Below are positions 15,871-46,585 of a stretch of 64,000 nucleotides of DNA, one piece after another. The stretch is from Tridacna crocea (Eukaryota; Mollusca; Bivalvia; Cardiida; Cardiidae): positions 8,831,501 through 8,895,500 of the forward strand of contig OX031072.1 in the NCBI GenBank assembly GCA_943736015.1. Direction: 5' to 3'. Numbering within the stretch: position 1 is the stretch's first letter; each line of letters begins with the position of its first letter. A program made the translations under genes and the position numbers. The notes under the pieces were generated by a model, which saw only the letters and a list, made by a program, of their open reading frames with translations, did no database searches and was not told the DNA's origin.

Positions 15871-16358
15871 TTAACCTGACCCTTTATCCCTTATACCACA
15901 CAATCCCAAGTCTTAACTCATTACCAAACGACAATATTTTAGGCTTGTCCAAATTGAAAGCATTGCAGACGACAAAAGAAAAGTGACTGAAAATTTGAAA
16001 TTTGTTTTGTGAAGGGTAGAAAACATTGTGGGAAAAGGAGAAAATGCTGGTTACCAGCATTTTCTCCTTTTTCCACAATGTTTTCTAAAGGTTTCTTTCT
16101 CAGGGGCGTCAAAAGTAGGGATTGTGTGGTAATGGGTTAATGACCCAATGACAGAAGCCTTTTGAAAATATTATGGGAAAAGGAGAAAATGCTGGTCACC
16201 AGTATTTTCTCCTTTTCCCATAATGTTTTCTACCTTTCCCAAAATAAATGTTCATTTTTGAGGTACGTTTATATACAATTAATTTTGTTGTCTGCAAATG
16301 CTTTGGATTTCAGCAAGCCTAAAATTATGTTATCTGGGTTTATCATAAAGAAAGAGTA
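15871..16358 (-). mobile_element. MITE family A split by a nested copy
   Basis: Left fragment ends ACACAATCCCAAGTC at 15912; right fragment resumes TGACCCAATGACAGAAGCC at 16141. The inserted copy occupies 15913..16140 at the internal TTAA normally read as CTTTTAACGACCC. Core arms ATTATGGG/CCCATAAT differ symmetrically from the usual ATTGTGGG/CCCACAAT. Confidence 0.8.
15913..16140 (+). mobile_element. MITE family A nested in another copy
   Basis: Intact, TTAACTCATTACCAAACGAC to GGTAATGGGTTAA, sitting exactly on an internal TTAA of the copy spanning 15871..16358. Confidence 0.88.
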
Positions 16359-16378
16359 ATCATTAATATTAACTCCTC

Positions 16379-16602
16379 TTAACCCTTTCCCAAACAATCC
16401 CCGTTTTTTACGGGTCTGGAATAGTAGCCTTTTGAAAACACTGTGGGAAAAGGAGAAAATGCTGGTAACCAGCATTTTCTTCTTTTCCCGCAATGTTTTC
16501 TACCCTATCATAGACAGAAATCATCTTTTCAGCATGAGTTGAAGTGTCTGCAAATGCTTTCAATTTGGTCTGGTCCAAAATTGTTGTCTGGGAAAGGGTT
16601 AA
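16379..16602 (-). mobile_element. MITE family A
   Basis: CCCTTTCCCAAAC-ended lineage like 962; TTAA at 16379 and 16599. Confidence 0.82.
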
Positions 16603-16641
16603 CTCTTGCCAACTATGGGTAAATGACTTTTCTTGAGGTCT

Positions 16642-17097
16642 TTAACACCCATTACCACACAATCCCTACTTTTGATGATCCTGAGAAAGAAGCCTTTAGA
16701 AAACATTGTGAGAAATGGAAAAAATGCTGGTAACCAGCATTTTCTCCTTTTCTCACAATGTATTCTACCCTCACAAAACAAATTTCAAATTTTCAGTCAC
16801 TTTTATTTGGTCATCTGCAAATGCCATAGATTTGGACATCGCTTAACCCATTACCACACAATCCCTACTTTTGACGCCCCTGAGAAAGAAGCCTTTTGAA
16901 AACACTGTAGGAAAAGGAGAAAATGCTGGTAACCAGCATTTTCTCCTTTTCCCACAGTATTTTCCACCCTTCCCAAAACAAATTTCAATTTTTCAGTCAC
17001 CTTTATTTTGTCGTCTGCAAATGTTTGCAATTTGAACCAGTCTAAAATTTCGCTGTGTGGTAAAGAGTTAAAACATTGTCATTTGGTAATGAGTTAC
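16642..17097 (-). mobile_element. MITE family A split by a nested copy
   Basis: Left fragment runs to GATTTGGACATCGC at 16842; right fragment resumes AACATTGTCATTTGG at 17072. Arms GTGAGAAA/TTTCTCAC are symmetric variants of GTGGGAAA/TTTCCCAC. A ~25-bp direct repeat ending ATGACTTTTCTTGAGGTC flanks the whole unit (16608..16641 and 17104..17128). Confidence 0.78.
16843..17071 (-). mobile_element. MITE family A nested in another copy
   Basis: Intact, TTAACCCATTACCACACAA to GGTAAAGAGTTAA, inserted at the CCTTAAAA-like site near the right end of the host copy. Confidence 0.85.
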
Positions 17098-17132
17098 AGA
17101 CTTCTGCCAACTAATGACTTTTCTTGAGGTCG

Positions 17133-17440
17133 CCCCCACCTGGGTGGCTGAGTGGTTAGCTTGTCGGGACTCGTGACCTGGTGATTGTGACTTCGATACC
17201 TGATTGAGGCAAACTTTCTTTCCGTCATATTTACACACCTCACCTTGGCTGAAGCATGTGAGAAAAGTAGTTGGTGTATTACCTTCAGTCTGAAGGTGTC
17301 TGCTCCGATGCTATTTTTGTGAAGACCAGTCACAAAAATAGCATCGGAGCAGACACCTCCAGACTGAAGGTATTGGTGTATGTGCGTCACTGACCGCCAT
17401 GATATGACCTTAGTTGTTAAAGTGGCATTGAAACTCAATA
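17133..17440 (+). mobile_element. tRNA-derived SINE-2, interrupted
   Basis: Head with A box TGGCTGAGTGG (17145) and B-box-like ACTTCGATACC (17190), typical of tRNA-Ser-like pol III promoters; the tail runs TATGACCTTAGTTGTTAAAG. A 93-bp inverted repeat element (17280..17372) splits it. Confidence 0.7.
17280..17372. mobile_element. MULE-like solo inverted-repeat element
   Basis: TACCTTCAGTCTGAAGGTGT and its complement with almost nothing between, flanked by identical 9-bp direct repeats TTGGTGTAT (17271 and 17373). Nine-base duplications plus long inverted ends fit Mutator-like elements. Confidence 0.75.
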
Positions 17441-17751
17441 CAACCAAATTTCTTGAGTTCTATAAGTATCTTTTTTGTGCCAACTGAACCTGATTAGCAT
17501 TAGATGATAGATACAAGATCAGATTGCACATTATGTGCAGTCTGATCTTGATCTACACCATCCAAAAAGGCTATCTAAGGCAACATAGAAAATGAAGGCT
17601 TTTAGAAATCACAAAGAAAAAGAAAAAATTGCAAATAATAAGCAATTTCTACTTCCCCGATTAGATTTTCTAATCCATGAGAGAAGAATGATTAGGTGTA
17701 CAAATTTTAAACTTATCAATCTAGATAGAGTCTAAAATTTGTCTGAAAAGG

Positions 17752-17986
17752 GGTCCACTCATTACCAAACGACAATATTTCAGGCTTGTCCTAATCGAAA
17801 GCATTTACAGACGACAAAATAAAAATGCCTGAATATCTGAAATTTGTTTTGTGAAAGGTAGAAAACATTGTGGGAAGAGGAGAAAATGCTGGTCACCAGA
17901 ATTTTCTCCTTTTCCCACAATGTTTCGTAACGGCTTCTTTCTCAAAATGGGTCGTCAAAAGTGCAAATTGCGTGGTAACAGGTTAA
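17752..17986 (+). mobile_element. MITE family A
   Basis: Left CTCATTACCAAACGAC, right GTGGTAACAGGTTAA; core ATGCTGGTCACCAGAAT. Confidence 0.75.
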
Positions 17987-18194
17987 CTCTCAAAAATTCA
18001 AAACATGCCCATAATGAAAGCACAAGCAGAAAATAGATTAAATGTTGCCAAAATGATAGTAATTCTGTGGAAAGGATGGAAAACATTTTCAAAAATAGAG
18101 AAAATACTGGTTACCAGCATTTCTCCTTTATTTGAAAGTGTTTTCAACAACTTTCTTTAGTTTTGTAAACTCAGGATTGTTTGTAAAGGTTTAA
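17983..18194 (+). mobile_element. MITE family A, diverged, shares TTAA at 17983
   Basis: Body recognisable by AATACTGGTTACCAGCATT; outer core replaced by TTCAAAAATAGAG/CTTTATTTGAAAG, itself an inverted pair. Confidence 0.6.
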
Positions 18195-18228
18195 AATGCA
18201 TAAATATAGCCTCTAGGTCGTCTAGGAT

Positions 18229-18457
18229 TTAACTCTTTCCCAAACAACAAAATTTTAGACTGGTCCAAATAGAAAGCATTTGCAGAAGACAAAATAAATG
18301 TGACTACAGAATTGAAATTTGTTTTAGGAATGGAAGAAAACTTTGTGCAAAAAGGAGAAAATGCTGGTTACCAGCATTTTGTCCTTTTCCCATAATGTTT
18401 TCAAAAGGCTTCTTTCACAGGGGTGTTAAAAGTTGAGATTGTATGGAAATGGGTTAA
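18229..18457 (+). mobile_element. MITE family A, intact ends
   Basis: TTAA at 18229 and 18454; core with GTGCAAAAAGGAG left and TTTTGTCC right differences. Confidence 0.8.
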
Positions 18458-18597
18458 CCAAAATTTAATATCTCATAGCTTGGTTACCCTTTTGTTTGTT
18501 TAATTTTGTAATTTTTACACCATTTTCAATACTGTGTCAATCAAAGTATTACAGCAACTTGTGCTCCTATGGTATATTTCTGGAGTTTCTTGAAGCA

Positions 18598-18820
18598 TAA
18601 CATTTTATATTTGTCCATACTGAAAGAATATGAAGACAACATAACTATAAAGGTAATTAAAGATAATAGAATTTATATTTGAAGAAGCTGAAACATTGAG
18701 GGAAAAGAAGAAAATTTTGGAATAAGCATTTTTCCCTGTTTACTACAATGTATTTTAAAAACTGTCTTATTCTTACTCTGTAAGAATCCTTAAAACTCTA
18801 GATTATGCTCTATAGGCAGA
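18598..18820 (+). mobile_element. MITE family A, heavily decayed
   Basis: Order of segments kept (TTTGTCCATACTGAAAG, GAGGGAAAAGAAG, CAATGTATTTTAAAAAC) but few exact matches. Confidence 0.4.
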
Positions 18821-18825
18821 GCTCC

Positions 18826-18957
18826 AGATGGTGGGAGTGGTTTTGATTTTAAAATTGAAAATATTAATTATTCTCAACTAATCTCTATGTTGTGGGTACT
18901 CATTAGAATCGTCTCATCGAGACAATTCTAATGAGTACTCACAACATTGTGGTTTCA
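18826..18957. repeat. Inverted repeat TACTCATTAGAATCGTCTC
   Basis: TACTCATTAGAATCGTCTCA is followed at once by TGAGACAATTCTAATGAGTA after ATCG. Diverged relatives occur near 24950..25000, 48440..48540 and 50400..50470, so this is a separate fold-back family. Confidence 0.55.
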
Positions 18958-19599
18958 AAGAGAAATAACAATGTAAGAATACCATCACTTCCTCTTACCT
19001 GGCACTCTGATAGGGTTAACACCACCTAGCTGACAGATACCACTACCAACAACAGCCTCACACCCTCTCCAGGCTGCTTTTTTAACATAAATGAAAGCAC
19101 TGCATAAGGATGCTGACACACTGCTGCAAGTGCTTGATTTTTAGTAAGAATTCTAACTCAAAACAGTCTTAACATAAAAGTTCGTAACAAATGTACAGCT
19201 GAAATATAAACCACACCTGGCAGGATTCAAAACCGTGTGACAAATATCCCCATTTTGTCAAGATTTAAAAGCCTAACACCATGACCTCTGACCTAGAGAT
19301 ATCTCCCCAATGCAGTTGTCAGGTTTTGTATTTAAACTGGGACGACACTATGCATGACGGAGTGGTCTCCCGTAATAAAGGGGCATAATATGTGTAAAAG
19401 AATTATCTGCTCTTGTTGTAAAGGCGCCCCCTTTGATGGTTAACAAAATGTCCAAGTTTGAAGTAAATATCTTCAGTAAAAATAGAGATAATACAAAATG
19501 TCAAAGTTTTCACACAACATCACAGACAATGACGCAGACGCCGTCACTGACAATGCATGGGAAATAATAATACCTCAAAGTTTTCTTTGATTGGTGTGT

Positions 19600-20023
19600 A
19601 TTAGATTTTAATGCCATTTTAACAGCTTAGGTTGTATCAGGGTCCAAAAAATTTCAGAATTCATACTTGTCTTCTTGCCATTTTGCATCCTCTTCTTGCC
19701 ATTTTGCACTCGTCCTCCAGTTAGACAAAGAAGGATAATGTAATAATTGCTCTCATCAAACATCTTCCAGCGAACAATCAGATTTTCTGGACTCTGCATA
19801 CCATGGCGATCAGTGATGCACTCATCTGTTTCCTGGCTTTCTCACACCAGTACTGACGCAACTCTCTGTCCAAAGCCACTGACTACTTTTTCCACATGCA
19901 TTAGAGGTGAGAAGCAAAAACATCGCCAGAGAGGAAGTTTGCCTCAATCGGATATCAAACCCTCAACCTCCAGGTCAGGAGTCAGAATGCTAACCACAAA
20001 ACCACCCAGCTGGGCCTTGTTTT
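19600..20023 (-). mobile_element. SINE-2, reverse copy
   Basis: Reads AATGCCATTTTAACAGC, then CCATGGCGATCAGTGATGC, ending in the reversed head (CAATCGGATATCAAACCC, CTAACCACAAAACCACCCAG). An extra stretch (CTTCTTGCCATTTTGCA twice) lies inside at 19670..19700. Confidence 0.6.
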
Positions 20024-20132
20024 CTTTGAAAACAGCCAAGTTGGGATGAAATGGCTGAAGTCATGTTTGTTGATTTTGTTTGAATGATGATTACAATGTT
20101 ATCCGAGTCATAAAACAAGCCCTGTACTTCAC

Positions 20133-20356
20133 CCTTCACCACATGAAAAAATTTTAGACTGGTCCAAATTGAAAGCATTTGCAGACAACAAAATAAAAGT
20201 TACTAAAAAATAGAAATTTGTTCTGGGAAGGATAGAAAATACTGTGGGAAAAGGAGAAAATGCTGGTTACCAGCATTTTCTCCTTTTCCCATAGTGTTGT
20301 CAAATGGCTTCTTTCTCAGGGGCGTCAAAAGTAGGGATTGTGTGGTAATGGGTTAA
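20133..20356 (+). mobile_element. MITE family A
   Basis: Left end blurred (CCTTCACCACATG); right GGTAATGGGTTAA; core perfect. Confidence 0.75.
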
Positions 20357-20361
20357 CCCTT

Positions 20362-20465
20362 ATGCTGTCAAGCTCAACTGAAAGGTCTTGTGCAGACAGT
20401 GCAGATCAGGATCAGACTGCACAGATGTGCAGTCTGATCATGAATCCACACTGTCAAATAATATT
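20362..20465. repeat. GATCAGACTGCAC palindromic repeat
   Basis: GATCAGACTGCAC, short spacer, GTGCAGTCTGATC, with outer partners GACAGTG and CACTGTC. Same family at 17510..17565, 45350..45410 and 49216..49323. Confidence 0.6.
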
Positions 20466-20504
20466 TTTACTCAAAAGATCCTTTGAAAAAGCAAAATTCT
20501 GACT

Positions 20505-20735
20505 TTCCCAAATCTTTATAAAAGCCTTCCTTTAAGGTCATTAAAACTCAGAATTATGTGGTAAAGGGTGACCAAACTAAGCCAGACTTGGTAACCAGCA
20601 TTTTCTTCTTTTCCTACACTGTTTTCTACCCTACCAAAGACGGGTATCATCCTTTCAGCTTCACTCAATTTGTTAAATGCTAAAACAATTTGGTTGAATC
20701 CAATTTTGACATTTAGTAAAGAGTTTACATACCAA
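20505..20735. mobile_element. MITE family A remnants
   Basis: Two half-elements facing each other: GTCATTAAAACTCAG...GTGGTAAAGG, then TAACCAGCATTTTCTTC...AGTAAAGAGTTTA. Confidence 0.45.
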
Positions 20736-20831
20736 GAAATCAGCTGAAATTCATCAACTTTCAATACAAGATCCTGGAACACATATCTTCATCACAATGT
20801 AAAACTTTAATGCACACACCTAAAGCTATGT

Positions 20832-21038
20832 TTAACCCTTTACCCAATAAGGCATTTCTATGGTATCTCTAATTGACCCTAAATAATAGCAAGGATGAAG
20901 CCTTTTCTTATGTGTATATGACACCTTTTGACAGCATAGAAAACATTGCGACAAAAGGTGAAGAGCAATTTCTCCTTTTGCCACAATGTTTTCCAAAGGC
21001 TCCTACAAGCAATGAGTATCTATGAAGGAAAAGGTTAA
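20832..21038 (+). mobile_element. MITE family C with core deletion
   Basis: TTAACCCTTTACCCAATAAG left end; core reads AAAGGTGAAGAGCAATTTC, so the left arm lost AAATTGCTCGTGAC. Confidence 0.75.
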
Positions 21039-21276
21039 CACTGACCATAATTCAAAACTAGCTGTAGAGAAATCCTACAAGCCACATGTTATTCAGTGAA
21101 AAATAGATTTTCATGAGGTTCACAACTTACTCATAAGCTTTGTGTTACAAGTAGAAAGGTACCTGGTGGGGAAAATCAAAGTTCTATGATGTTAAATGTG
21201 TGTAATTTTAGCTTCTATAAAATTCAGAGATTGGTAGTTTTTTTTTTTAGTTCTTCTCTTATTTCATTTAATGAGT

Positions 21277-21395
21277 AGAGAGAGAGAGAGAGAGAGAGGG
21301 GGGAGAGCAGGAGGAACTTGAGCAAGAGAGGGAAGAAGGGAGAGAGAGAGATAAAAGAAGGGAAAAAGACAGAGAGAGAGAGAGAGAGAGAGAGA
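21277..21395. repeat. (GA)n simple repeat
   Basis: Runs of GAGA at 21280..21298 and 21373..21395 within purine-rich sequence. Open frames across it are an artefact of the repeat. Confidence 0.9.
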
Positions 21396-21445
21396 TGTGC
21401 TGATTGCCCTGCTATGACTTTAAATGGCATTGAACACTCATACAA

Positions 21446-21780
21446 ACAAACATTAAACGACCACCCAAATAGGAAAGTGTTTGAAAATGTGGTGGAAAAG
21501 GGAGAACATGCTGGGAAGTTGGGAACCATCATTTTCCGTCTTTCCCACTATGTTTTCTTTCCTATCTAAGACCATCCAATAATTTAAGTAATGTTTTAAT
21601 TGTTGTCTGCTAAATGCTCTCAGATTGGACAAGTCTGCAAATTTTGCCATGTTGTCAAGAGTAAACCCTTTACCTGACCAAACCCTTTTTGCCTTGTCCA
21701 AGTTAAAAGCATTTGCAGACAGCAATTTCAAATAGGAACAAATGGTGTTAGTTTTCTTTTATAGGGTAAATATTTTTAAC
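21446..21780. mobile_element. Two decayed family A MITEs
   Basis: 21446..21666 reversed (GGTGGAAAAGGGAGAAC... GTTGTCAAGAGTAAA), then a forward left half from 21662 (ACCCTTTACCTGACC, AAAGCATTTGCAGACAGC) ending near 21780. Confidence 0.5.
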
Positions 21781-22073
21781 ATGTCCATATTTCAACTACT
21801 CATACTTTATCCACTGGAGGTGGGATTCCCTTATTTTATGGCAAATTTTCTGAATTTAAATGCATGAATTTATAGTGTCTTTAGGCGCATCGACATCCAG
21901 TACCATTTAGCGTGCAATAAAGAAGTAATGAAAGGAAGTAAAGTATTAAAGTGCCCTCATACAGTACCGGTATAATAAGTCCTCTTTACTTTACGCATTA
22001 ATCAGGAAACATGTCGTACACATATATCGATTATAAGATGTCTGAAACACTTTTTAATGGAATTATCTAAAAT

Positions 22074-22148
22074 TACGTCATTTTCATTTTTATCTAGTTA
22101 TGATGCGCTTGGAAGTTTGACACTAAAGTTGTCGATTTTAAGGTAAGG
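22074..22148 (+). promoter_or_regulatory. Possible 5' end of the zinc-finger gene
   Basis: TACGTCA half-CRE at 22074 precedes TTGTCGATTTTAAG|GTAAGG, a usable splice donor at 22143, in one of the few repeat-poor stretches upstream of 23232. Purely positional suggestion of a non-coding first exon. Confidence 0.2.
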
Positions 22149-23079
22149 TTGGGTGTGAGTGAGGGCTGTTTGTAGCCTTCTGAAGTAAGTAATATTGTGA
22201 AGGGAGCTACTTTTTTTTTTGGGGGGGGGGGGATGGAGGTTACTTAGATGAAATGCATTATTTCTCTACTTTTACACATATATTCAAAGTATAAAGGGAA
22301 AGAAAGAAATATTTTTATGTGTGCCTGGACTGGAGCATACTTGGAAAGTTGAACGTTGGCTTCTAGTGGCATCAATGTGACGTGTAGATCAAGATCAGAC
22401 TATCAGATAATCTTCTGATTCACAATCACAGTGTGCATTTGCCTATTTGCCAACGTCTAGACTACATGTAAATACAAAAATTCCATTTTAAATCAACTGA
22501 GGTGCAATAAAGAATCACAATGCAGCTCGCTAAATTGATTAACATCACGTGAATAAAATCTGTCCATCCATGCATATCAGTCATGTGCAAAAGAAAAGAA
22601 AGACAAGCAGAATTTTCGAACAAAACAGAATCGGCAAACACTTCAAAATTAATATGAATTCTTGATTTACCTTGGTATGAAATGCAGACTTGGAAAACTT
22701 GGGATAATAGGCTACTAACGTTAGGCCTACTTTATAAATTTTTATTAAGTTGAAAGACGATCATTCTCGATGAGCAGACGCTTGCATTCACATTTAAATC
22801 CCGAGCACATGATGACCAGGAAGAAATATAGTCGTCAGATGAAAATTTGTTTTTGGAAAAAACTAACCTAGAATGAATGTAAGTAGTCATACATGAAGCT
22901 GATAAATGATCTCCATGTAGATTTTAACACAAGAATTCGAGTAGTATTCCTGAAGGTCGTGATGGTGTATAACAATACAATATCATTAGTTTTCGCGGAT
23001 CCTTCATTTGCAAGCTTTTTTTTTTTCGTACAGGTTAACCAAACAAGAGATCAAATGCAGTTGAAATTATCAATTATCG

Positions 23080-23208
23080 ACTGTAGAAAACCATGTTGGT
23101 AAAGGAGAAAATGCTGATTACCAGCATTTTCTCCTTTTCCAGCAAGGTTTTCAAAAGCTCATTACGTCTGGGTCATTAAAGCTTGGGAATGTGTGGTATT
23201 TAGTTTAA
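23080..23208 (+). mobile_element. MITE family A right two-thirds
   Basis: ATGCTGATTACCAGCAT core, then GTGTGGTATTTAGTTTAA. It ends about 24 bp before the candidate coding exon at 23232 and could supply sequence near its acceptor. Confidence 0.65.
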
Positions 23209-23231
23209 TCTTATACAAATATCATTTACAG

Positions 23232-23366
23232 AAAAAAGTAAGAAGATGCAGGAAATTTATATATTGTCCATTTATGTGACCATTCATCAAGAAAATGAAA
23301 TCAAGAAACTTTTCAAAAGTCATGGATGGGAGTATGATCGTGTTGATGAAGTTGAAAGAAATAAAG
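23232..23366 (+). CDS. C2H2 zinc-finger gene, probable first coding exon
   Basis: 135-bp exon candidate between a TCATTTACAG acceptor and a strong AAAG|GTAAGT donor, open throughout in one frame. It leaves one base (G) at its 3' end, exactly what the large exon at 26022 needs (acceptor TTTGATTTCAG). The likely start is the ATG at 23246 (purine at -3), giving MQEIYILSIYVTIHQENEI, then KKLFKSHGWEYDRVDEVERNK before joining EEAHPV. If so the protein is 877 residues. It abuts a MITE remnant on the left and is followed by another MITE at 23404. I do not recognise the domain; support is splice-site quality and phase agreement. Confidence 0.6.
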
Positions 23367-23403
23367 GTAAGTGTACAAGATGTGTTCATCAGTGTATTCA
23401 ACT

Positions 23404-23767: not shown

Positions 23768-23992
23768 CACTTTACTGCAAAATCCGGACTTTTACCAATC
23801 CTGTGAAAGAAACCTTTTGAAAACATTGCGGTAAAAGGAGAAAATGCTGGTAACCAGCATTTTCTCCTTTTACCACAATGTTTTCTACCCTTCCATGTCC
23901 AAATTTCAATTTTATCATCACATTTATTTTGTCGCCTGCAATTGCTTTCAATTTGGACCAGTCTATAATTTTGTTGTCTGATAAAGAGTTAA
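23764..23992 (-). mobile_element. MITE family A with symmetric arm change
   Basis: TTAA at 23764 and 23989. Arms read GCGGTAAAAGGAG and CTCCTTTTACCAC: the GGG/CCC pair has become GGT/ACC in both arms. Confidence 0.82.
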
Positions 23993-24217
23993 CCCTTTAC
24001 CCCATAAGGCATTTCTATGGTATCTCTAATTGACCCTAAATAACAGCAAGGAAGAAGCTGTTTCTTATGTGTATATGGTACCTTTTAATAGCATAGAAAA
24101 CATTGTGACAAAAGGTGAAATTGCCCGTGACGAGCAATTTCACCTTTTGCCACAATGTTTTCCAAAGGCTCCTACAAGCAATGTGTAGAAATGAGTATCT
24201 ATGGAGTGAAGGGTTAA
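23989..24217 (+). mobile_element. MITE family C, shares TTAA at 23989
   Basis: TTAACCCTTTACCCCATAAG to GTGAAGGGTTAA; core GACAAAAGGTGAAATTGC with GCCCGTGACGAGC centre. Confidence 0.82.
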
Positions 24218-24600: not shown

Positions 24601-24614
24601 CGTTTGTGGTCACA

Positions 24615-24833
24615 TTAAACTCTTTATTACACAATCCCAACTTTTAACGACCTTGATGAAGACAGCTTTTGAAAACATTGTGGGAAAAGGAGAAAATGCT
24701 GGTAACCAATGTGTTCTACCCTATCAAAGACAAATTTCATCATTTGAGCCACTAATACCTTACGATGATTCGTCGTCTGCCATTGCTTTCAATCTGGACC
24801 AGCCCAAAATTCTGCTATTTGGTAAAGAGTTAA
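24615..24833 (-). mobile_element. MITE family A lacking one palindrome arm
   Basis: AGGAGAAAATGCTGGTAACC runs directly into AATGTGTTCTACCC; TTAA at 24615 and 24830 intact. Confidence 0.78.
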
Positions 24834-25525: not shown

Positions 25526-26021
25526 ATTCTATTTCTTTTAAGCTTTTAACCCTTTCTGGGAGGAGTTTTATAAAAATCCAGTACAGTTCTTTTCCGTTAT
25601 TCCTTGTGGCGTACCCCTCTAGCATAGCAACGCATTACAATATTACTTCAAGTGCGAGAAATGCAAGGTATATGACGTCATATTTCCCATCTGGTTGTTA
25701 GGCACGCACAATTTGCCTAGGCAACAAGAACGTGAAAATCGAAGATCGAAAAATATTTTCACTGCTATTTCTTGATATCCTACCGGAAAGCATGAAATAA
25801 AAGAAAATTCATAATGGGTATATTACTCTGAAAACAGGGGAAGTTATGTGATAAATGTATATTTTTTCATATTTGAACATTTATTCTGCACTGTACCAGA
25901 GGCAACAGGTACATCACCTTTTGGGAAAGTTATCTGATATGGTAAAATTTCTTCCAAATGTTCCAACAGGAGATTGTAGGTAAAGATTCAACAACTTACA
26001 TTTTTTATTTTTTGATTTCAG

Positions 26022-28534
26022 AAGAAGCCCACCCTGTAACTGATCATGAAACTGATCATGTAGCTCCCAAGAATCACACTGTATGTGATAAAGAATTACT
26101 GGTACATGGTGTTTCACTGCAGAGGAAAAATGGGCCAACAGCTCAAAATCCAACATCGGAGGCAACTGAAAAATTTCAAGTACATAAAATAAACAGTAAA
26201 GTAGACAACGCTACCATGAAACCTTTAGGGTGTGACAATGGAGATAACAAAGCATCAGGTGACATTGTGCTTGAAATGCCTAAAAATTTTGTTATGCAAA
26301 AATTTGATATAAAGAAGCATAAAAATCCAAGACAAGAATACACACAGAGTGTGAAGAAGAAAATAGTTCTTCCCATGAGAGTTACTAGAAGAGGGAGAAC
26401 AAATAAACAGAGCCAAAACAGTAATCAAAATAGTTCTTTCCAAGTCAACATTAACACAAAGATTAAAGAAAGGATAGTAGCTCTACAAGGCAAGAAAGAC
26501 ATTGTCAATGACAGTAGTGAAAGGAAAATAAAAAACCCTTTATCCCAAGCTGTTCCTTCTGAAACAAATACATGTCAATCTGAAAAAGAAGCAAATGAAA
26601 AGGTGTTAAGGGAGCCATATAAACCTGTTGAGACAGTAGTAACAAATGATAAAATGTATGTAGAGGAATCTGAAATAGATCAATTAAAATCTACTGAAAG
26701 TAAAGGTAAAAAGCCAAAAATTAGCATAAAAAAGGGTAAAAGTAAGACTCTGACATCATTATCAGAGTTAGATAATCAGATAAAAGAAATGGAGAAAAGT
26801 CTACCTGAAGATGTTAAACTAAAAGTTCTGCAGGTTTTTAAGGATGCTGAAAGTAGTAAAAATGGTATAAAGGGTTTTCAATGTTTTTACTGCAGCAGAG
26901 TGTTTAGAAAAAAATCTAACTTTATCAAGCATATAGACAAACACACCAAACAGGCCTTTGATTGCCCAGAATGTGGGAAAAGATTTAACAATCACAGGAA
27001 TATGAATGCTCACCGTTTCAACCGGTCAAGATTGAAAGAGTTCAAATGTGATATTTGTGGGCATAAAGCAAAGACCGCCTGCCTGTTAAGGATCCACGAT
27101 AAAACGGAACATCCACCTTCTGAAACTTTCTATTGTCATCTCTGTCCAAAAGTTGTCAACACTAAAGCTTACCTAAATATGCACTTGAAGTTTTCTCATG
27201 GTATTGATGAAGGAATATATGAATGTCCTATATGTGGACAGAAATCTAAACGACCTAAACACTTTCAAAAACATTTAAAAGAACATCAAAATGATAATAG
27301 CCATAATGATAGACAGTGTTCAGTTTGTCATAAAGTTTTCAAAAGCAAGCTATTATTGAGAAGTCACAAGCGTGTTCACCTAGATCGAAAACACGAGTGT
27401 AAACTGTGTGGAAAAAGATTTTCAACAGCAACAAAACTAGCTGGCCATGAGCGAACACACTCAGGTGTCAAACCGTATCAGTGTCCACATTGTGATTACA
27501 AATCAACTCAAGCTGGAAACTTGAGAAGCCATATGAAAGTACATCAGAGAGAACAAGAGGTGAAAAAGGAATCTGCAAAGTCTAAAAGCAAATCTGCACA
27601 GAAAAAGTTGACAACAAATGAAACTTGTGCCTCAGTTCTGGACCAAACAAACCCAACCCAAGTTTGGTATGATAATAAAAATTACTCCCATGATCAGATG
27701 TTGCCTGTCAGTACTACCACACAGTATGAAGGGCAAGGTGTTGTGTACCCTGAACAAGGACAACAGATTTTTGACAGTGAATTAGTTTATAACAATTTAA
27801 AGACAAGTTCAGCTAAAGATGACTGTCACCAACAATTACCTGATGAAATGTATGCAACACCTCAAGTTGCAAATCAGTATTCACTGGATTATAACATGGA
27901 AAACTTCACAAATGCATATGATACAAGCCAATACTACAATCCAGTTGACTCTTCTTACATGATACAAAATGACACAACAATTACAAACAGTGTTACAACT
28001 CATCCACAGCAAATGCATCATCTATATCAACAACAATCAGGTCACATGTCTGACCACCAGAGCCACCACCAACAACAGGTACAAGAACAACATCAACCAC
28101 ACCAAGTACAACAAGGCCACAGTCAGACTACAGTGTCACATGGTGTTATGTATCAAACATCCATTGCTGCAGAAACGGCAAAACATGAATGCATAGAGCA
28201 ACAGAACAGTCTATATCCAAGTCAGTATTATACCAACATTTCAAAACACTCCAACACTGGAAATTACCATCAAGGTATGAAATTTGACAAATATGAACAT
28301 GATCAAAATTTAATGTACCCTTCAGATAAATCAGACTTTACAACCTCAACTAGTAGGATTTATTTAGGAGACGTTACAGGTCAAGAGCCATTAAATTATC
28401 CGTATACAGCCACAACAGCTTTACAATACAGCGAGAGAGCCAGTCAACAAGATTATGATATTCATCCTCAGAATACCTACACAGAACTACAACAAGCAAC
28501 TGTAACAAATGCAAACCAATCACAAATGTCTTGA
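26022..28534 (+). CDS. C2H2 zinc-finger protein, large last exon
   Basis: Encodes a probable nuclear DNA-binding protein. The frame is open from an ATG at 25958, but a TTTGATTTCAG acceptor at 26012..26021 makes the exon start more likely at 26022. Residues (counted from 25958) about 306-530 hold eight finger modules beginning FQCFYC, FDCPEC, FKCDIC, FYCHLC, YECPIC, RQCSVC, HECKLC and YQCPHC. Finger 2 lacks the second zinc histidine at the expected place (NAHRFNRS), so it is degenerate. Only fingers 7-8 have a TGEKP-like linker (HSGVKPYQ). The N-terminal third is Lys/Glu-rich and likely disordered; residues about 530-858 are Q/H/Y/T-rich, like an activation tail. Family is certain; the specific orthologue is not recognised. 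Confidence 0.93.
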
Positions 28535-36711: not shown

Positions 36712-36945
36712 TTAACCCTTTCCCAAACAAGCCCTGGTTTTTACGTGTCTGCAGTAACAGTCTTTTGAAAACACTGTGGGAAAAAGAGAAATTGCTCGTA
36801 AAGAGCAATTTCTCCTTTTCCCACATTGTTTTCTACCCTTTTTGAGAACTTGCGGCCATTTTCTCAAAATCTATAATTGATGTCTGCAAACTCTTTCAGT
36901 TTGGGAGAGTCCAAAATTTGTCAGTTGGGACTGGGAAGGGGTTAA
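36712..36945 (-). mobile_element. MITE family B
   Basis: TTAA at 36712 and 36942; core AAATTGCTCGTAAAGAGCAATTT. Confidence 0.8.
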
Positions 36946-37258: not shown

Positions 37259-37486
37259 TTAACCCATTACCACACAATCCGGATTTTTGATGACCCTGAG
37301 AAATAAAGCCTTTGAAAACATTGTTGGAAAAGGAGAAAATGCTGGTAACCAGTATTTTCTTCGTTGCCAACAATATTTTCAACCCTTTCCAAATCAGATT
37401 TCAATTTTTGATTCACATTTAATTTGTCGTCTACAAGTGCTTGAATTTGAACCAGTCCAAAGTTTTTTTGTTTGGGAAAGAGTTAA
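37259..37486 (-). mobile_element. MITE family A with symmetric arm change
   Basis: Arms carry ATTGTTGG and CCAACAAT in place of ATTGTGGG/CCCACAAT; inner right arm decayed (TTCTTCGTTG). Confidence 0.78.
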
Positions 37487-38719: not shown

Positions 38720-41240
38720 AAGAACATCTTTTGACAAAATCCAGCAGTGATGATGATGAATGCTTCATAATTCTTTTCTCTTACACAACAGAGTGTTTGG
38801 TCTATCTGTATATCAGTCGAGTATAATGCCAAATTGTATCAAGTTAGAATCCTGTTAATGCTCTTCGTCATGAAGCAATGCACATATGTGAACAGTATGA
38901 CTCATAATTTTGTAGAACATCCAGGTAGAGGCTTAGTTAATTTAGAGAAAGAAAATAACTTATTTGACATCATCATTCATTCAAGAATGTGACTTTTTTT
39001 GGTCATACAACAGAGAGCTATGTCTTTCTGCGTAAGCTGCTCTCTTATGTAGCATCCAGTCCTATAAAATGGGATCAAAATTGCAAATCAAAATCCCTTT
39101 TATACACTTTGTCATGATGAGGCAATGCACATATGGTATCGGTCTTAATCCTCGAAAAAGAGGATATTTGTCCCTGCAAGGATTTGAATCCCGCCAGATG
39201 CGATTTGTATTTGAGCTATGCATTTATTTGTTTCTTTATTATGGACTTTGTACATAAAAATCTATATAACCTGCAGTCTAATCTAATGTCAAATTGTATC
39301 AAGTAAGATTAGAATACTGTTGATACACTTTGTCAAGATGCCCTGCATATGTTAAAAAATGACAAACATAATATGATATTGTAAAATATCCTGTTGGACA
39401 TAAAAACATAAACTTATTTGGCAACTACAATCAGTCATGGATGACGATTGCTTATTTGCTCTTTTTTCTTAAACGACAGAGCGCTTGGTCTATCTATATA
39501 ACCTGCAGTCTAATCTAATATCAAATTGTAAAATGTGAGATCAGATTCCTGTTCATACACTTTGTCATGAAGCTATGAACATATGTTAGCATTATGCCAC
39601 ATTATTTTATAGAATGTCTAGGTCGAGTTGCCGTTATAACATTTGGACACAGTAATTAATTACGAGTAATCAATTTCAAATAAAGATTGATTTATGACTT
39701 ATTTTCTCTCATACAACAGAGTGCTTGGTCTATCTACATGTATATAATCTGTAGTCTAATCTAATGTCGAAGTGTATTTAGATAGAATCAAAATTCCCTT
39801 TATACACTTTGTCATGAAGCAATGCACATTTGTTACTATAACGCCACATTATTTTAACTCATTACCACACGAGACAATTTTGGATGGTCCAAATTGAATG
39901 CATTTGCAGACGACAAAATAAAGGTGACTGAAAAATAGAAATTTGTTCTGGAAAGGGTATAAAACACTGTGGGAAAAGGAGAAAATGCTGGTTACCAGCA
40001 TTTTCTCCTTTTCCCACAGTGTTTTCAAAAGGCTTCTTTCTCAGGGGCGTCAAAAGTAGGGATTGAGTGGTAATGGGTTAAAGAATGTCTAGGTCAAGTT
40101 GCCATTATATTATTTGGACAAAGTAATTAATTACCGAGTAATCATTTTTAAATAAGGATTGATTTATGACTTATTTTCTCTCATACAACAGAGTGCTTGG
40201 ACTATCTATATAATCTGTAGTCTAATCTAATGTCAAAGTGTATTGATATAGGATCAAAATCCCATTTATACACCTTATCATGAAGCAATGCACATATACA
40301 AGCATTATGCCACATTATTTTATAAAATGTCCAGGTCGAGTTGCCATTATATCATTTGGACAAAGTAAACAAAGTTATTTGATGATAACAAGCAGTGATG
40401 ATGAATGCTTAAGAAGTTGTTTTGATATTGTAGAATGTCTAGGATGAGGTAAGGTTATATTTGTCAAACAAAGTTAACAAAGTTATTTGCCAAGACATAT
40501 TTTGTTGTAGAATGTCTAGGTGAATGTTAAGTTATATTAGTTGGACAAAGAAAGTAAATTGACATCACTAATCATTTTTAAATAATGATTGATTATGACT
40601 TATTTTCTGTCATACAACAGAGTGCCTGGTTTATCTATATAATCTGTAGTCTAATGTCGAAGCGTATAGAGGTGGGTTCAAAATCTCATTTATACACTTT
40701 GCCACATTATTTTATAGAATGTCCAGGTCGAGTTGCCATTATATCATTTGGACAAAGTAAACAAAGTTATTTGACAATAACAAGCCGTCATGATGATGAA
40801 TGCTTTAGAAGTTGTTTCTGTTATAAAACAGAGTCTTTGGTCTATCTATATACCCTGCAGTCTAATCTAACATCAGATTGTATCAAGTTCGATCAGAATC
40901 CTGTTGATCCACTTTATCATGATTCACTGCACATATGTTAAAAAGATGACAATCATAATTATTATGATGCTGTAGAATGTCTGGGTTAAGATTTAATCAT
41001 ATAGTTGGACAAAAACATAGACTTATTTGATAATGTTCAACAAACAGTCATGAATGATGTTTGCTTAATAACTCTTTTCTTTTAAACGACAGAGTGCTTA
41101 GTCTGTCTACCGTATTTACCCTGCAGTCTTGTCTAATGCCAAATTGTATCAAGTTAGATCAGGATCCTGTTGATCCAGAATGTCATGATGCACTGATCAT
41201 ATGTTTAAGAAAATATTTAAAAAAAAATATTATGATATTG
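38720..41240 (+). repeat. ~230-bp degenerate tandem array
   Basis: Units carry ACAGAGTGCTTGGTCTATCT (near 38790, 39010, 39475, 39715, 40188, 40617, 40828, 41089), CTGCAGTCTAATCTAATG, ACTTTGTCATGAAGCAATGC and TATAGAATGTCTAGGTCGAG. Spacings are about 210-260 bp or twice that, once the inserted MITE is discounted; roughly ten units. Short open frames inside are not conserved between units. Confidence 0.75.
39854..40081 (+). mobile_element. MITE family A inserted in a tandem-repeat unit
   Basis: The unit reads ACATTATTTTAA|CTCATTACC...GTAATGGG|TTAAAGAATGTCTAGG, while empty units at 39598, 40311 and 40703 read ACATTATTTTATAGAATG or similar. One TTA(A) in the empty site became two at the borders. 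Confidence 0.9.
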
Positions 41241-41249
41241 TAGAATGTC

Positions 41250-42420
41250 TAAAATGAGGTTAAGTCACATTTGTCATTGTTTATCTTGCTCAGTGTGGAA
41301 CCATGGTAATGTCCCTGCTATCAAACATTGCTTATCTGGCTCAGTGTGGAACCAAGGTAACAGTCCTGCTATCAAACACTGTTTATCTGTGTCAGTGTGG
41401 AACCATGGTAACGTCCCTGCTATCAAACATTGTTTATCTGAGTTAGTGTTGTTCCGTGGTTATGTTACTGCTATCAAACATTGTTTATCTGAGTCAGTGT
41501 GGAACAAAGGTAATGTCCTTGCTTTTAACCATTATTGATCCAAGTCAATGTTGTACCAAGGTAACGTTCCTGCTATCAAACATTATTTATCTGTGTCAGT
41601 GTGGAACCAAGGTAACGTCCCTGCTATCAAACATTGTTTATCTGGCTCAGTGTGGAACCAAGGTAACGTCCCTGCTATCAAACATTGTTTATCTGGCTCA
41701 GTGTGGAACCAAGGTAACGTCCCTGCTATCAAACATTGTTTATCTGAGTCAGTGTTGTTCCATTGTTATGTTACTGCTATCAAACATTGTTTATCTGGCT
41801 CAGTGTGGAACCAAGGTAACGTCCCTGCAATCAAACATTGTTTATCTGAGTCAGTGTTGTTCCGTGGTTATGTTACTGCTATCAAACATTGTTTATCTGG
41901 CTCAGTGTGGAACCAAGGTAACATCCCTGCTATCAAACATTGTTTATCTGGCTCAGTATGGAACCAAGGTAACATCCCTGCTATCAAACATTGTTTATCC
42001 GATCAGTGTTGTTCCGTGGTGATGTTACTGCTATCGAACATTGTTTATCCGAGTCAGTGTTGTTCCGTGGTTATGTTACTGCTATCGAACATTGTTTATC
42101 CGAGTCAGTGTAGTTCCGTGGTTATTTTACTGCTATCGAACATTGTTTATCTGGCTCAGTGTGGAACAAAGGTAATGTCCTTGCTTTTAACCATTATTGA
42201 TCCAAGTCAGTGTTGTACCAAGGTAACGTTCCTGCTATCAAACATTGTTTATCTGAGTCATTGTTGTAACGTAGTTAGGTCCTTGCTATCAAACATTGTT
42301 TATCTGGCTCAGTGTGGAACCAAGGTAACATTCCTGCTATCAAACATTGCTTATCTGGCTCAGTGTGGAACCAAGGTAACGTCCCTGCTATCAAACATTG
42401 TTTATCTGAGTCAGTGTGAT
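41250..42420 (+). repeat. 51-bp minisatellite, about 23 units
   Basis: Unit: TCTGGCTCAGTGTGGAACCA, then AGGTAACGTCCCTGCTATCA and AACATTGTTTA. Two unit types alternate irregularly, one with GTGGAACCAAGGTAAC and one with TTGTTCCGTGGTTATG. Because 51 is a multiple of 3, two forward frames stay open over long runs (NQGNVPAIKHCLSG and LAQCGTKVTSLLSN repeats, up to 305 codons). No promoter, splice context or unique flank supports a protein. Confidence 0.88.
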
Positions 42421-42779
42421 ATCATTGATCCATTGTGTCTCTCAAACATTTTTATACCCCTGTGAAAGGAATGTTTTCGGGGGGATACTGGAATCAGCCT
42501 GTCTGTCCGTCTGTTTACAAATATTTGCCTCTTTCAGTCAAAGTGCTGTTGGGGATATAAAGTCACTTTCAGTGACAGCTCTACTTTATCATACTCTTAG
42601 TAGTTTGCATACCAAGGTCGCTGCCAAATGATAGTATTTTCATTTTTGTTGTATTTAATTGTACAATGAAATTTAGGTCTTACATAAACACATTTAAATG
42701 AGAATTCAATAAAACCAGTTTTGCAACCATTGTTATCATTTTACAATAAAACTTTATCTTATTCAATTTCTCAGAATCG

Positions 42780-44850
42780 TGTATGATTCCAGCTCACCTG
42801 GAATACAAATTGCTCATGGTGAACGCTTCTGATCATTTATAGAGTATCCTTTTAGGCATATACCCCCACCCCCTAAAAGCTACATTCTCTTGATAATATC
42901 TGAAATGAATGCCAAAATCGGTCTTGTTGAGTCAGTTAACCAGGTCCAATCTTAGAAAAATCTTGTGTATTTTGTAGAGACCACAATTTCAGTTCAGTAC
43001 TCGTATTACTTGGTCAGAATATTTTTTTTTATAGTGTTATAATTTCGTAATATCATTTAAATTTGAGCTCACCCTAGTACAAAGTTCTCATGGTGAGTTT
43101 TTGTTAAAATGCTTTGTGTGTAGTGTGTCGTCACCATATACCCAATGTACCCAGTACAGGCTACATTTTCAGTCAAATACCTATGAAGCTTGTTCAGATT
43201 TTTTTTTATTATGTTTTGGATTGTGTGAAATTTGGTCATGTCAGGCCAAGAATAAGTTCACCATGCGAAATCTTAGAAAAAAAAAAACCCTTGTGTGTGC
43301 TGAAGAGGCCATTTTTTCAGTCTTACACTCTTACAGATTGGTCAAACTATATGTGTTAATATGAGACTAGCTTTAAAAATGAGTCATTTAGGGAAAAAAA
43401 AAAAACACTTGTTCACCCGCTCTGGTATCATAAAAAACCTTGTGCACACTCTAAAGGCTACATTCCAATATTCAAGAAAGTTTTTCAGAATTATGTCTTG
43501 ACAATACGGTATCTTGCATGTTTTGAAACCTTTGGGGTCGTGCTGTGTCCGTCGTGCGTCGTCAACTTTTACCTTGTGTACGCTCTAGAGGCGACATTTT
43601 CAGCCTGATGCTCGTAAAACCAGGTCAGAATGTTTGTCTTGGTGAGACCTTGGACGAGTTCGGGTCAAATACTAGGTCACTAGGTCAAATCTTAGAAAAA
43701 CCTTGTGTACGCTCTAGAGGCCACATTTCCAGTCAGACACTAGTAAAACCTAGTCAGAATGTATGTCTTGATAATATCTTTCACGAGTTCAATAATTATG
43801 CATCATGTGGGGGTCAAAAACTAGGTCATTACGTCAAATCTTTGAAAATTCTTGTGTACGCTCTAGAAGCGACATTTTCAGTCCAAAACTCCTGAAAAAT
43901 GGTCAGAATGTTTATCTTCATATTCTGGACGAGAAGCAAAATGGTTCATGTCGGGTCAAACACTGTCACTAGGTTAAATCTTGGAAAAAACTTAAGTTCG
44001 CTCTAGAGGCCACATTCTCAGCCTGATACTCGTGAAACTTAGTCAGAATGTTTGTCTCGATGATACATGTATCTTGGCATCTTCGGAAGCCAAGGCTAAT
44101 GATTCACTACGTTACTCTACCCTTGGCAGATCAAGCTTGATTTTTACATACACCAGATACGCTTTTTCTTTAGATGCAGCCAGCTCTAGCTGCAATTAAT
44201 GAAATTGCTCATAGCATTTCATCGTTGATAAAAATAGAATAAGGTAGCGACCTTTCAAATAGAAGGTAAACATGGAAACCCACGTGGATGTCTGCTTATC
44301 GCTTCATGTTAAATAATTGTATTCGTAAGCTGTTTGTAAAATGATATTTCATTGGCTTTCAGAAATATGATGTAAAGGGGGGTAATAACCAGCATCCAAT
44401 AGAGGGCCCATCGCAGGAATCTCGAAATCGGACTCAATCAGCCAAGGTAAGATCCACGTAGTGATTGTAACCTTGGCTTGCGAAGATGGTATCTTGGACG
44501 AGATCGATAATCGGTCATGTCAGGTCAAAATTAGGTCACTAGGTCAAATCTTAGAAAAACCGCGTGTACGCTATGGAAGCCACATTTTCTGTCCAAAACT
44601 GTTGCAAGTTGGTCAGAATGTTTGTCTTGATGATTTCTTGGACCAGTTTGCGAGTTGGTCATTTCGGGTGAAATACAAGGTCATTGAGTCAAATCTTCTT
44701 TAAAAACCTTTTTCAGTCAAATACTGATGAAAATCTTGGTAGAATCATAGAATGTTTGTCATAATACCTCAAAAGAGAGTGAAAATTGGTCATCTTCAGT
44801 TAAAAGACTCCGAAGAGCAACTTCAAGGCCACTATGGCCCTTTGTTTTTT
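42780..44850. repeat. Bivalve-type long repeat (AGGTCACTAGGTCAAAT units)
   Basis: Bounded by AGCTCACC...CTCATGGTGA motifs at 42780 and 43067 and by GCCACTATGGCCCTTTG at 44830. Units contain GTACGCTCTAGAGGC, GTCAGAATGTTTGTCTTG and TAGGTCACTAGGTCAAATC about every 130-160 bp. This repeat class is familiar from bivalves; no reverse transcriptase or transposase frame remains. Confidence 0.65.
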
Positions 44851-45076
44851 TTTTCTTCTTCTTTTAATTCCAATGTCAGCATTAATGATAATTAACTTAT
44901 ATTATTCTGTAACTTGTTATAACATAAGTGATACAATAAAAACTGTTTTTTGTCGTAACATAGTGATATAATTAAATAAAACGTCTTTGATGAAAGGTTT
45001 TTACGTTTTACAGAGCACCAGGCCAAAGGCTAGTAGAAGCTTTACACTTATACCTCTCCAGCCATCTGTCAATTCT

Positions 45077-45304
45077 TTAACCCTTTACGAAAAAATCCCG
45101 AGTTTTAACGACAGTGCAGAAGAAAGCCTTTTGAAAACATTGTGGGAAAAGGAGAGACTTCTGGAAACCAGCTTATACTCCTTTTCCCACAATAATTTCT
45201 ACCCTTTCTGGTCCCCCTTTTTTTTACATTTGAGTATTAAAATTGTCTGCAACCGCTTCCAATTTGGATCAGTCTAACATCTTATCGTTTGGTAAAGAGG
45301 TAAT
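45077..45304 (-). mobile_element. MITE family A, diverged core
   Basis: Core GAGAGACTTCTGGAAACCAGC; right end decayed (AAAGAGGTAAT). Confidence 0.7.
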
Positions 45305-45334
45305 CCTTAAGTTTCTACATAAACGAAACGGAAA

Positions 45335-45415
45335 AAATTCGGAAAGTGAAGATATAAGATCAGGCTGCACGTTTTGTGCAGTCTGATCTTGATGTTCAAT
45401 GTCTGCAAAAGGGCA
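45335..45415. repeat. GATCAGACTGCAC-type palindrome
   Basis: GATCAGGCTGCACG, TTTT, GTGCAGTCTGATC. Confidence 0.6.
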
Positions 45416-45443
45416 TAGAGATGCTCTCAGGCAGCTCACGAGT

Positions 45444-45682
45444 GAACTCTTTACCACACGAAAAATTTTAGACCGGTTCAAATTGAAAGCATTTGCAAAC
45501 GACAAAATAAAGGTGTCTGAAAAATTGAAATTCCATTTTTTATTTGTTCTGGGAAGGGTAGAAAACAATGTGGGAAAAGGAGAAAATGCTGGTAACCAGC
45601 ATTTTCTCCTTTTCCCACTGTGTTTTCAAAAGGCTTCTTTCCCAGGGGCGTCAAAAGTAGGGACTGTGAGGTAATGGGTTAA
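45444..45682 (+). mobile_element. MITE family A with 10-bp insertion
   Basis: Extra CCATTTTTTA inside TTGAAATT..TTTGTTCTGGG; GGTAATGGGTTAA at right. Confidence 0.78.
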
Positions 45683-45989
45683 GGAATAATATATCTGATC
45701 ATGACGGTATTTGTTTTGCAGTCGAACATTTCTGAAATCATTCTAGAACAAGAGCTTCGCAGAGCGGCGCTTGTACGCTCGAATGGGTTTCTCAGTCGAT
45801 GAAATGGGTTAAAATCGAGAATACCTGGAGAGATTAAAATTCTAGGAGTCACACGCACAACTACACATAGGGATTCATTGTGGTAGGTTTGAACTTAATC
45901 CAATGGAAACTGCGCACACAAGAAATTGTTTAATGTACGGACGACTGGGGCCATAACATTATACGAACCTTGGGACTTATAGAGACGAC

Positions 45990-46155
45990 AAATCTCTCAA
46001 AATAAGAAGTTTCTCCTATCTCCTTGCCCAGTAGGGTAGAAAATATTGTGGAAAAAGAAGAAAATGCTGATTACTAGCATTATCTCCTTTTTCCACATTG
46101 TTTTTAAAGGGGTTCTATCTCGGGTAAAAACAGGGATTGTGTGGTAATGGGTTAA
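45990..46155 (+). mobile_element. MITE family A right two-thirds
   Basis: GTAGGGTAGAAAATATTGTG onward; core GCTGATTACTAGC; ends GGTAATGGGTTAA. Confidence 0.65.
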
Positions 46156-46367
46156 AGGATTCATGATAGCCACTAAGACGGGATATACTATTTCTCATCG
46201 CGTATGATTGTCTAGATGACAGTTATGTGGGAAAGCAGCCAGGAACTCGGGAAGAATATTGTGTGCAGTACTGCGAAGTACTGAGGGGAAAAAACTCTAG
46301 GAAAGCTTGAAAGGTGCATTGCATAACCCCCTCCCTCCGTATGACTGTATAATGCCGAAAAATGGCG

Positions 46368-46585
46368 TTAACTCATTACCAAACGACAATATTGTAGGCT
46401 TATCCAAATCGAAAGCATTGGCAGACGATAAAAAAAAAGTGACTGAAATTTTAAAACTTGTTTTGTGTTGGGTAGAAAACATGGTGGGAAAAGGAGAAAA
46501 TGCTGGTTACCAGCATTTTCTCCTTTTCCCACCATGTTTTCTCCAGGCTTCTTTCTTGTGGTCGTCACGAGAGTTAATGGTTTAA
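46368..46585 (+). mobile_element. MITE family A with symmetric arm change
   Basis: Arms AACATGGTGGG and CCCACCATGTT: both depart from AACATTGTGGG/CCCACAATGTT at the paired position. Confidence 0.82.

What the first reader, a model, noticed from the sequence alone, without database searches (positions are those of the whole stretch)
16142..46585. Symmetric substitutions keep the palindrome arms matched
Several copies differ from consensus at paired positions in both arms: ATTATGGG/CCCATAAT (16170), GTGAGAAA/TTTCTCAC (16708), GGTAAAAG/CTTTTACC (23830), ATTGTTGG/CCAACAAT (37320), CATGGTGGG/CCCACCATG (46480). Families A, B and C also differ symmetrically (GGAG/CTCC versus GGTG/CACC; ATGCTGG versus TTGCTCG). 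Independent mutation would break pairing. Either arm-to-arm copying (hairpin-templated repair or replication) or selection for a hairpin acts on these elements.
Basis: partly seen in the sequence, partly recalled or inferred. Interest (0 to 1): 0.8.

Follow-up and report, generated by a model that had tools for sequence, protein, structure and literature searches.

The report
Matched arms of a palindromic transposon
A very abundant short mobile DNA element carries a near-perfect 67-base palindrome whose two arms changed together as the element family evolved, while mutations in individual copies mostly hit one arm only, so the matching looks largely inherited and not repaired copy by copy.

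Summary
In detail: all five cited changes are paired and arm covariation is far above chance. The palindrome (2 x 33 nt, 1-nt centre) is the core of a ~229-bp non-coding element with TTAACCCTTT ends in a 1.05-Gb eukaryotic genome; 51,913 copies have perfect outer-arm blocks. The commonest paired variants are family states: consensus cores of B1 and B2 differ from A at 3 and 4 pairs, all symmetric; carriers of paired 8C, 26T, 31C have related flanks. Other changes are mostly unpaired: 439 single-arm against 23 paired (10.1 expected), without significant excess in the inner stem. So in-place arm copying is not the main cause. Coupling acts mainly in source lineages, most likely by selection on a symmetric core: the inner stem diverges 3-5x less than the flanks. 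A residue stays unexplained: paired 9G has 218 copies against 13.8 expected on two flank types, and paired inner 24C has 288 copies, so low-rate template switching or conversion between copies is not excluded.

The parts
15907..16150 (-). family A element around core 16019-16085 (repeat unit as listed, 244 nt; element consensus is 229 nt; 15900-16160 was the genome query)
   Evidence: (D3)
16164..16230 (+). palindrome core, paired change at pair 10 (G-C to A-T), 2 further unpaired changes
16699..16765 (+). palindrome core, paired change at pair 13, 3 further unpaired changes
23819..23885 (+). palindrome core, paired change at pair 14 (T), 1 further unpaired change
37314..37380 (+). palindrome core, paired change at pair 12 (T), 5 further unpaired changes, all in one arm
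46475..46541 (-). palindrome core, paired change at pair 9 (G), no other arm change; 218 genome copies have this paired state with otherwise consensus outer blocks
5259..5331 (+). perfect palindrome copy, 35-bp stem predicted (-40.5 kcal/mol as single-stranded DNA)
269..335 (+). family B1 core (symmetric 26T, 31C; 8C in one arm)
3379..3445 (-). family B1 core (symmetric 8G, 26T, 31C)
36767..36833 (+). family B1 core
5975..6041 (.). family B2 core (GGCAAAAGGTGAAATTGCTC type)
14193..14259 (.). family B2 core with paired 31T
24096..24162 (.). family B2 core
13002..13045 (+). core of an element whose palindrome lost most of one arm
24671..24716 (+). core of an element whose palindrome lost most of one arm

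Best explanation
The palindrome is the conserved core of a TTAA-bounded, piggyBac-like miniature transposon (MITE). In the lineages that propagate, the two arms are kept matched, most likely because elements with a symmetric core (a stem or dyad) propagate better; now and then a source changes at both members of a pair and founds a family (8, 26, 31 in B1; 14, 21, 26, 31 in B2). Resident copies inherit these symmetric states and then decay by ordinary one-arm substitutions and by deletions in the palindrome. Shown: element anatomy, symmetric differences between family consensuses, carriers of paired 8C/26T/31C related by flank, other changes mostly unpaired, slow core. Inferred: that the coupling agent is selection for propagation, and that a piggyBac-type transposase moves the element. 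A small extra supply of symmetric copies by template switching or by conversion between copies is allowed and may be needed.
For: (217 elements; null with copy load and position effects; both-different pairs calibrate, 10 seen and 12.3 expected): paired-same 62 against 14.8 at the five diagnostic sites, 5 against 3.2 at inner pairs, 0 against 0.6 at pairs 1-5; 439 single-arm changes outside the diagnostic sites; arm changes unique within a flank cluster are 1 paired and 35 single (cut-off 0.10), 0 and 63 (0.14), 1 and 128 (0.20); carriers of paired 8C, 26T and 31C have more similar flanks than random sets (p 0.000, 0.005, 0.005; 400 draws); consensus cores of B1 and B2 differ from A at 3 and 4 pairs, none one-sided, while flank identity to A is 120 of 159 and 94 of 143 aligned bases; at cut-off 0.2, 4 of 6 flank clusters keep the same core consensus, one differs by 3 symmetric pairs, one (n=4) by one unpaired base. 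Inner-stem divergence is 0.21-0.32 of flank divergence, 0.24-0.41 without the 38 search-selected copies; B1 3.6% against 16.9%, B2 2.3% against 6.8%. Centre base non-A in 31 of 177, flank level or above; mean 2.5 L/R differences per copy, 42 of 217 perfect; 24 of 275 elements have cores shortened to 29-59 nt.
Against: Pairs 6-14 show 18 paired changes against 6.4 expected, in copies not related by flank. A nearest-relative count including the diagnostic sites gave 48 paired against 529 single and 22 both-different changes at K=12 (crude expectation 10.3), and only 16 of the 48 were shared by any of the 12 nearest copies. Genome-wide paired 9G is 218 copies against 13.8 expected from 1,691 one-arm and 51,913 consensus copies, and a longer pattern finds it on both flank types, 155:84, so one founding lineage does not explain it. 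Paired inner 24C has 288 copies. At cut-offs 0.26 and 0.30, where families are lumped, there is no excess of symmetric fixed differences. Terminal branches of the flank tree carry 30 same-base co-changes where 23.1 co-changes of any base are expected. In B1 the centre is less variable (7.1%) than the flanks. The slow core could also come from conversion between copies.
Confidence: 0.6

Rival explanations
1. Arm-to-arm copying in place: template switching or hairpin-templated repair during replication homogenises the arms of resident copies, turning some one-arm changes into two-arm changes and reverting others.
For: Excess of same-base pairs in flank-unrelated copies at 6-14; paired 9G about 16-fold over independence and on two flank types; paired inner 24C in 288 copies; position 22 both arms changed in 568 copies (any bases) against 10,249 one-arm, an excess of 2-4% of carriers for an assumed consensus count of 80,000-200,000; centre T in 19 of 215 read centres against 3.4% A<->T change at flank sites (T versus other changes p 0.055), as spacer inversion would give.
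Against: Unbiased copying should give about one paired change per reversion; the inner stem lacks most of the changes the flank rate predicts yet shows only 5 pairs against 3.2 expected. In the sample the excess is in the outer block, not near the loop. Centre T is not associated with paired changes (p 0.57; any non-A centre p 0.054).
Confidence: 0.2
2. Conversion between copies: short ectopic gene conversion centred on the palindrome spreads symmetric cores among elements with different flanks and keeps the core near the consensus.
For: Core 3-5x less diverged than flanks in every distance bin (0.24-0.41); same or near-same core consensus on diverged flanks; paired 9G on two flank types.
Against: The centre base is as variable as the flanks or more in the A set and B2, though not in B1; B-type states 26T and 31C stay with related flanks; A-runs at pairs 2-5 are as slow as the inner stem while 6-14 is faster, not a simple tract gradient.
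Confidence: 0.15
3. Selection on resident copies for an RNA or DNA hairpin (for example as small-RNA precursors).
For: Long stable predicted stem; outer-arm single transitions favour those that leave a G-T wobble on the minus strand, 87 to 50.
Against: Inner-stem single transitions show no wobble preference, 51 to 51; 175 of 217 copies have at least one L/R difference; constraint on this many copies is implausible (inference).
Confidence: 0.05

Closest known systems
piggyBac-superfamily MITEs (e.g. Pokey MITEs mPok1/mPok2, PMC4912750, seen in a search listing only; that Pokey is piggyBac-type is recalled)
   Same: Short non-coding element bounded by TTAA with TTAACCCTTT ends (A left end, B1 and B2 both ends); piggyBac transposase matches (PF13843) abundant in the same genome
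   Different: Large conserved internal palindrome; a source transposon with matching ends was not found in the 4 gene-start stretches read
REPINs (bacterial hairpin-forming miniature mobile DNA, PMC3116915, passages read)
   Same: Miniature mobile palindrome; the paper reports a predicted hairpin with common compensatory changes on its two sides and argues for selection on the replicating unit
   Different: Bacterial and linked to RAYT tyrosine transposases; here a eukaryotic genome and a TTAA-bounded element; in REPINs the spacer varies and the two end blocks are conserved, here the stem core is conserved and the flanks vary
Template-switch maintenance of hairpins (PMC8794818, abstract and section 7 read; PMC8604942, abstract start in listing)
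   Same: Predicts paired substitutions and inversion of the loop
   Different: The signature is weak here: most changes unpaired, no significant link between centre inversion and paired changes

Membership tests
MITE | short non-coding element, terminal inverted repeats, very high copy number | tested here: met
   229-bp consensus with clean ends, imperfect TIR TTAACYCTTTACCAMAC; 51,913 copies with perfect outer-arm blocks
piggyBac-type | TTAA at both ends as target-site duplication | tested here: inconclusive
   Consensus starts and ends with TTAA and conservation drops at once outside; no empty site was examined; that Kolobok elements also use TTAA is recalled
piggyBac-type | TIR beginning CCC/CCY after TTAA | tested here: met
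   TTAACCCTTT at A left end and both ends of B1 and B2; A right end reads TTAACTCTTT; that CCC is typical of piggyBac is recalled
piggyBac-type | autonomous partner with the same ends in the genome | tested here: inconclusive
   118 PF13843 match pieces; four 700-nt stretches upstream of transposase matches read; two hold TTAACCCTTTATATACG, sharing 11 nt with the element's left end; whether these are transposon ends was not tested
Template-switch homogenised inverted repeat | private paired changes at all stem positions together with loop inversion | tested here: not met
   sample: inner pairs 5 against 3.2 expected, centre T not linked to pairs, p 0.57; genome-wide counts of paired 9G and 24C point the other way, so a minor contribution stays open
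REPIN | bacterial, RAYT-mobilised REP doublet | not tested
   host genome is 1.05 Gb with eukaryote-like genes; RAYT not searched
Described structured RNA | match to an Rfam family | tested here: not met
   no match at gathering scores in the window

The most novel reading that the evidence does not exclude
A very abundant family of natural palindromes is homogenised arm to arm, or copy to copy, at a measurable low rate (of order 2-11% of variant-bearing copies end up symmetric at the two positions counted, 22 and 9), giving a genome-scale natural assay of template switching or ectopic conversion at palindromes in a eukaryotic genome, on top of selection for the stem in source elements.
Probability: 0.3. 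Interest if true: 0.65.

Novelty: new variant of a known kind. Interest (0 to 1): 0.42.

Why it matters
It separates two things that look alike: inherited symmetry from a coupled source lineage, and repair of symmetry in each copy. An MITE whose internal palindrome is its slowest part points to the core, and not only the ends, as functional in propagation. The many copies of one palindrome would let template switching, stem deletion and conversion rates be measured in nature.

Tried and rejected
Independent mutation of the arms as the full account: rejected. In-place arm-to-arm copying as the main cause: rejected because inner-stem changes in the sample are nearly all one-sided. RNA-level hairpin selection on copies: no wobble preference in the inner stem. 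Ascertainment as the cause of the slow core: 38 search-selected copies were removed and the ratio held; part of the apparent private flank rate may still be unsampled lineage variation, because the sample (217 elements) is sparse. Singleton counts in flank clusters gave an inner deficit that shrank at looser cut-offs. Tree-parsimony co-change counts were too noisy to separate old from new branches (internal: 4 same-base co-changes among 48 arm changes). A guess at the host from chromosome number was dropped. Rfam and tRNA scans were empty. The listings of five keyword searches of open-licence papers (15, 10, 15, 8 and 2 papers shown) named no description of this element or of arm covariation in MITEs; other literature was not searched.

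Weak points: the null model and the choice of five diagnostic sites were made after seeing the data; the Fisher test of 5/0 against 23/449 (p 5e-7) rests on that choice and is illustrative. B1 and B2 copies were picked by paired states at 26 and 21, so only 8, 14 and 31 are unforced there, and 8C is held by only about half of B1 copies. The 268-core set uses gapless scanning with at most 11 mismatches per arm. Of the 20 loci of 10 kb, 15 were centred on search hits. The flank-type baseline for paired 9G differs by subset: 101:51 in 217 elements, 95:22 without search-selected copies, 24:45 in consensus cores not deduplicated, so 'near baseline' is soft; that pattern (239 copies) is also not the same set as the 218. 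The consensus count for the inner pattern was never obtained; 80,000-200,000 is an assumed range, guided by the sample ratio 108:38.
Full report
What is there. The window lies in a 1.05-Gb genome of 31 contigs with eukaryote-like genes (a C2H2 zinc-finger ORF and an ankyrin-repeat ORF). It holds 56 gapless copies of a palindrome with two 33-nt arms and a one-base centre, at most 11 mismatches per arm. The palindrome is the core of a ~229-bp element that starts and ends with TTAA; conservation falls off at once outside it. Ends are TTAACCCTTTACCACAC on the left and, read inward, TTAACTCTTTACCAAAC on the right. In five 10-kb loci not centred on search hits 12 cores were found in 50 kb, which extrapolates very roughly to 250,000 copies. 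An exact pattern for the outer blocks of both arms has 51,913 copies genome-wide. A perfect window copy folds as a 35-bp stem, -40.5 kcal/mol as DNA.

Check of the observation. All five cited paired changes are present. They come with 11 unpaired changes in the same five cores. On 49 of the 56 window cores the stem has 40 two-sided pair-keeping cells against 9.1 in shuffles, and 35 of the 40 fall on pairs 8, 10, 12, 14, 21, 26 and 31.

Test for ancestry. Elements were found by their flanks alone, so that substitutions in the core were not used: 275 with both flanks, 217 kept after limits on core length and gaps and removal of duplicates. Paired 8C, 26T and 31C are carried by copies with similar flanks (p 0.000, 0.005, 0.005), so they mark subfamilies; paired 10T, 11A, 12T, 13A and 14A are carried by copies no more alike than random, 12A shows a weak tendency (p 0.16). 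A null with copy load and position rates predicts the number of both-different changes well (12.3 expected, 10 seen). It leaves paired-same changes at 62 against 14.8 (five diagnostic sites), 18 against 6.4 (other pairs of 6-14), 5 against 3.2 (inner stem) and 0 against 0.6 (pairs 1-5), with 439 single-arm changes outside the diagnostic sites. Leaving out the 38 search-selected copies changes little. Changes unique within a flank cluster are 1 paired to 35 single, 0 to 63 and 1 to 128 at three cut-offs. A cruder nearest-relative count that includes the diagnostic sites gave 48 paired, 529 single and 22 both-different (K=12).

Families. B1 (14 copies) and B2 (17 copies) have their own flanks, also TTAACCCTTT-bounded, and consensus cores that differ from A at 8, 26, 31 and at 14, 21, 26, 31, each symmetric in the consensus. 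Membership was assigned by paired state at 26 or 21, so only the symmetry at 8, 14 and 31 and the absence of one-sided family differences are unforced; 8C is held by about half of B1. Flank clusters about 20% diverged from the global consensus either keep the same core consensus or differ at three symmetric pairs (cut-off 0.2); one cluster of 4 differs by one unpaired base, and at cut-offs 0.26 and 0.30, where families merge, the contrast is lost.

Slow core, free centre. The inner stem diverges 0.21-0.32 times as much as the flanks in every distance bin, 0.24-0.41 without search-selected copies. In low-polymorphism columns private A/T changes are 5.8% in flanks and 1.4% in the inner stem; G/C 8.1% and 4.8%. 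B1 and B2 show the same: flank 16.9% and 6.8%, inner 3.6% and 2.3%. The centre base is non-A in 31 of 177 and varies in 29% of B2, but only 7% of B1. My reading, an inference: propagating lineages are constrained in the stem and free in flanks and centre, and the sparse sample makes lineage changes look private. Conversion between copies is an alternative.

What remains. Genome-wide counts in otherwise consensus outer blocks: 9G in both arms 218, in one arm 1,691, neither 51,913, so independence predicts 13.8 pairs. By a longer pattern, paired 9G copies lie on both flank types, 155:84; sample mixes are 101:51, 95:22 or 24:45 by subset, and that flank base marks a subfamily. Position 22: 568 with both arms changed (any bases) and 10,249 with one. 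Paired 24C: 288, its one-arm count not obtained. These do not fit single founding events for every paired state, and leave room for low-rate template switching or conversion. Against template switching, centre inversion is not tied to paired changes (T p 0.57, any non-A p 0.054). Single transitions in the outer arms favour minus-strand wobble, 87 to 50, but not in the inner stem, 51 to 51.

Who moves it. PF13843 piggyBac transposase matches are common in the genome (118 pieces). Four 700-nt 5' stretches were read; two contain TTAACCCTTTATATACG, which shares 11 nt with the element's left end. The filing as piggyBac-like rests on TTAA and CCCTTT (recalled as typical) and is not proven.

Comparison. 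REPINs show compensatory changes across a hairpin in a mobile element and a claim of selection on the replicating unit (PMC3116915, passages). Template switching is reported as able to maintain stems and invert loops (PMC8794818, abstract and section 7). The element here is best seen as an MITE variant with a conserved symmetric core.

Noticed in passing
window 41275-42418: 51-bp tandem repeat array of about 22 copies, 81% matches, open over long stretches in two frames
   Followed up: no
window 52258-53460 (-): ankyrin-repeat ORF; the 60 PDB matches shown (of 340) include BCL-3 among many ankyrin proteins
   Followed up: partly
window 25946-28534 (+): long C2H2 zinc-finger ORF of 862 codons, stop to stop
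   Followed up: partly
window 13002-13045, 24671-24716; 24 of 275 elements in all sequence held: elements with shortened cores (29-59 nt instead of 67), in many of them part of one arm deleted
   Followed up: partly
L050 around 6426-6510: the start of the element's left end repeated in tandem at 28-base steps
   Followed up: no
outer arms, 217 elements: single-arm transitions are asymmetric with element orientation (87 minus-wobble, 50 plus-wobble), not in the inner stem
   Followed up: partly
window 17280-17372: a different 43-bp-armed inverted repeat, 98% complementary, 7-nt spacer
   Followed up: no
window 58990-59434: GA-rich low-complexity array with 46-84 bp periods
   Followed up: no
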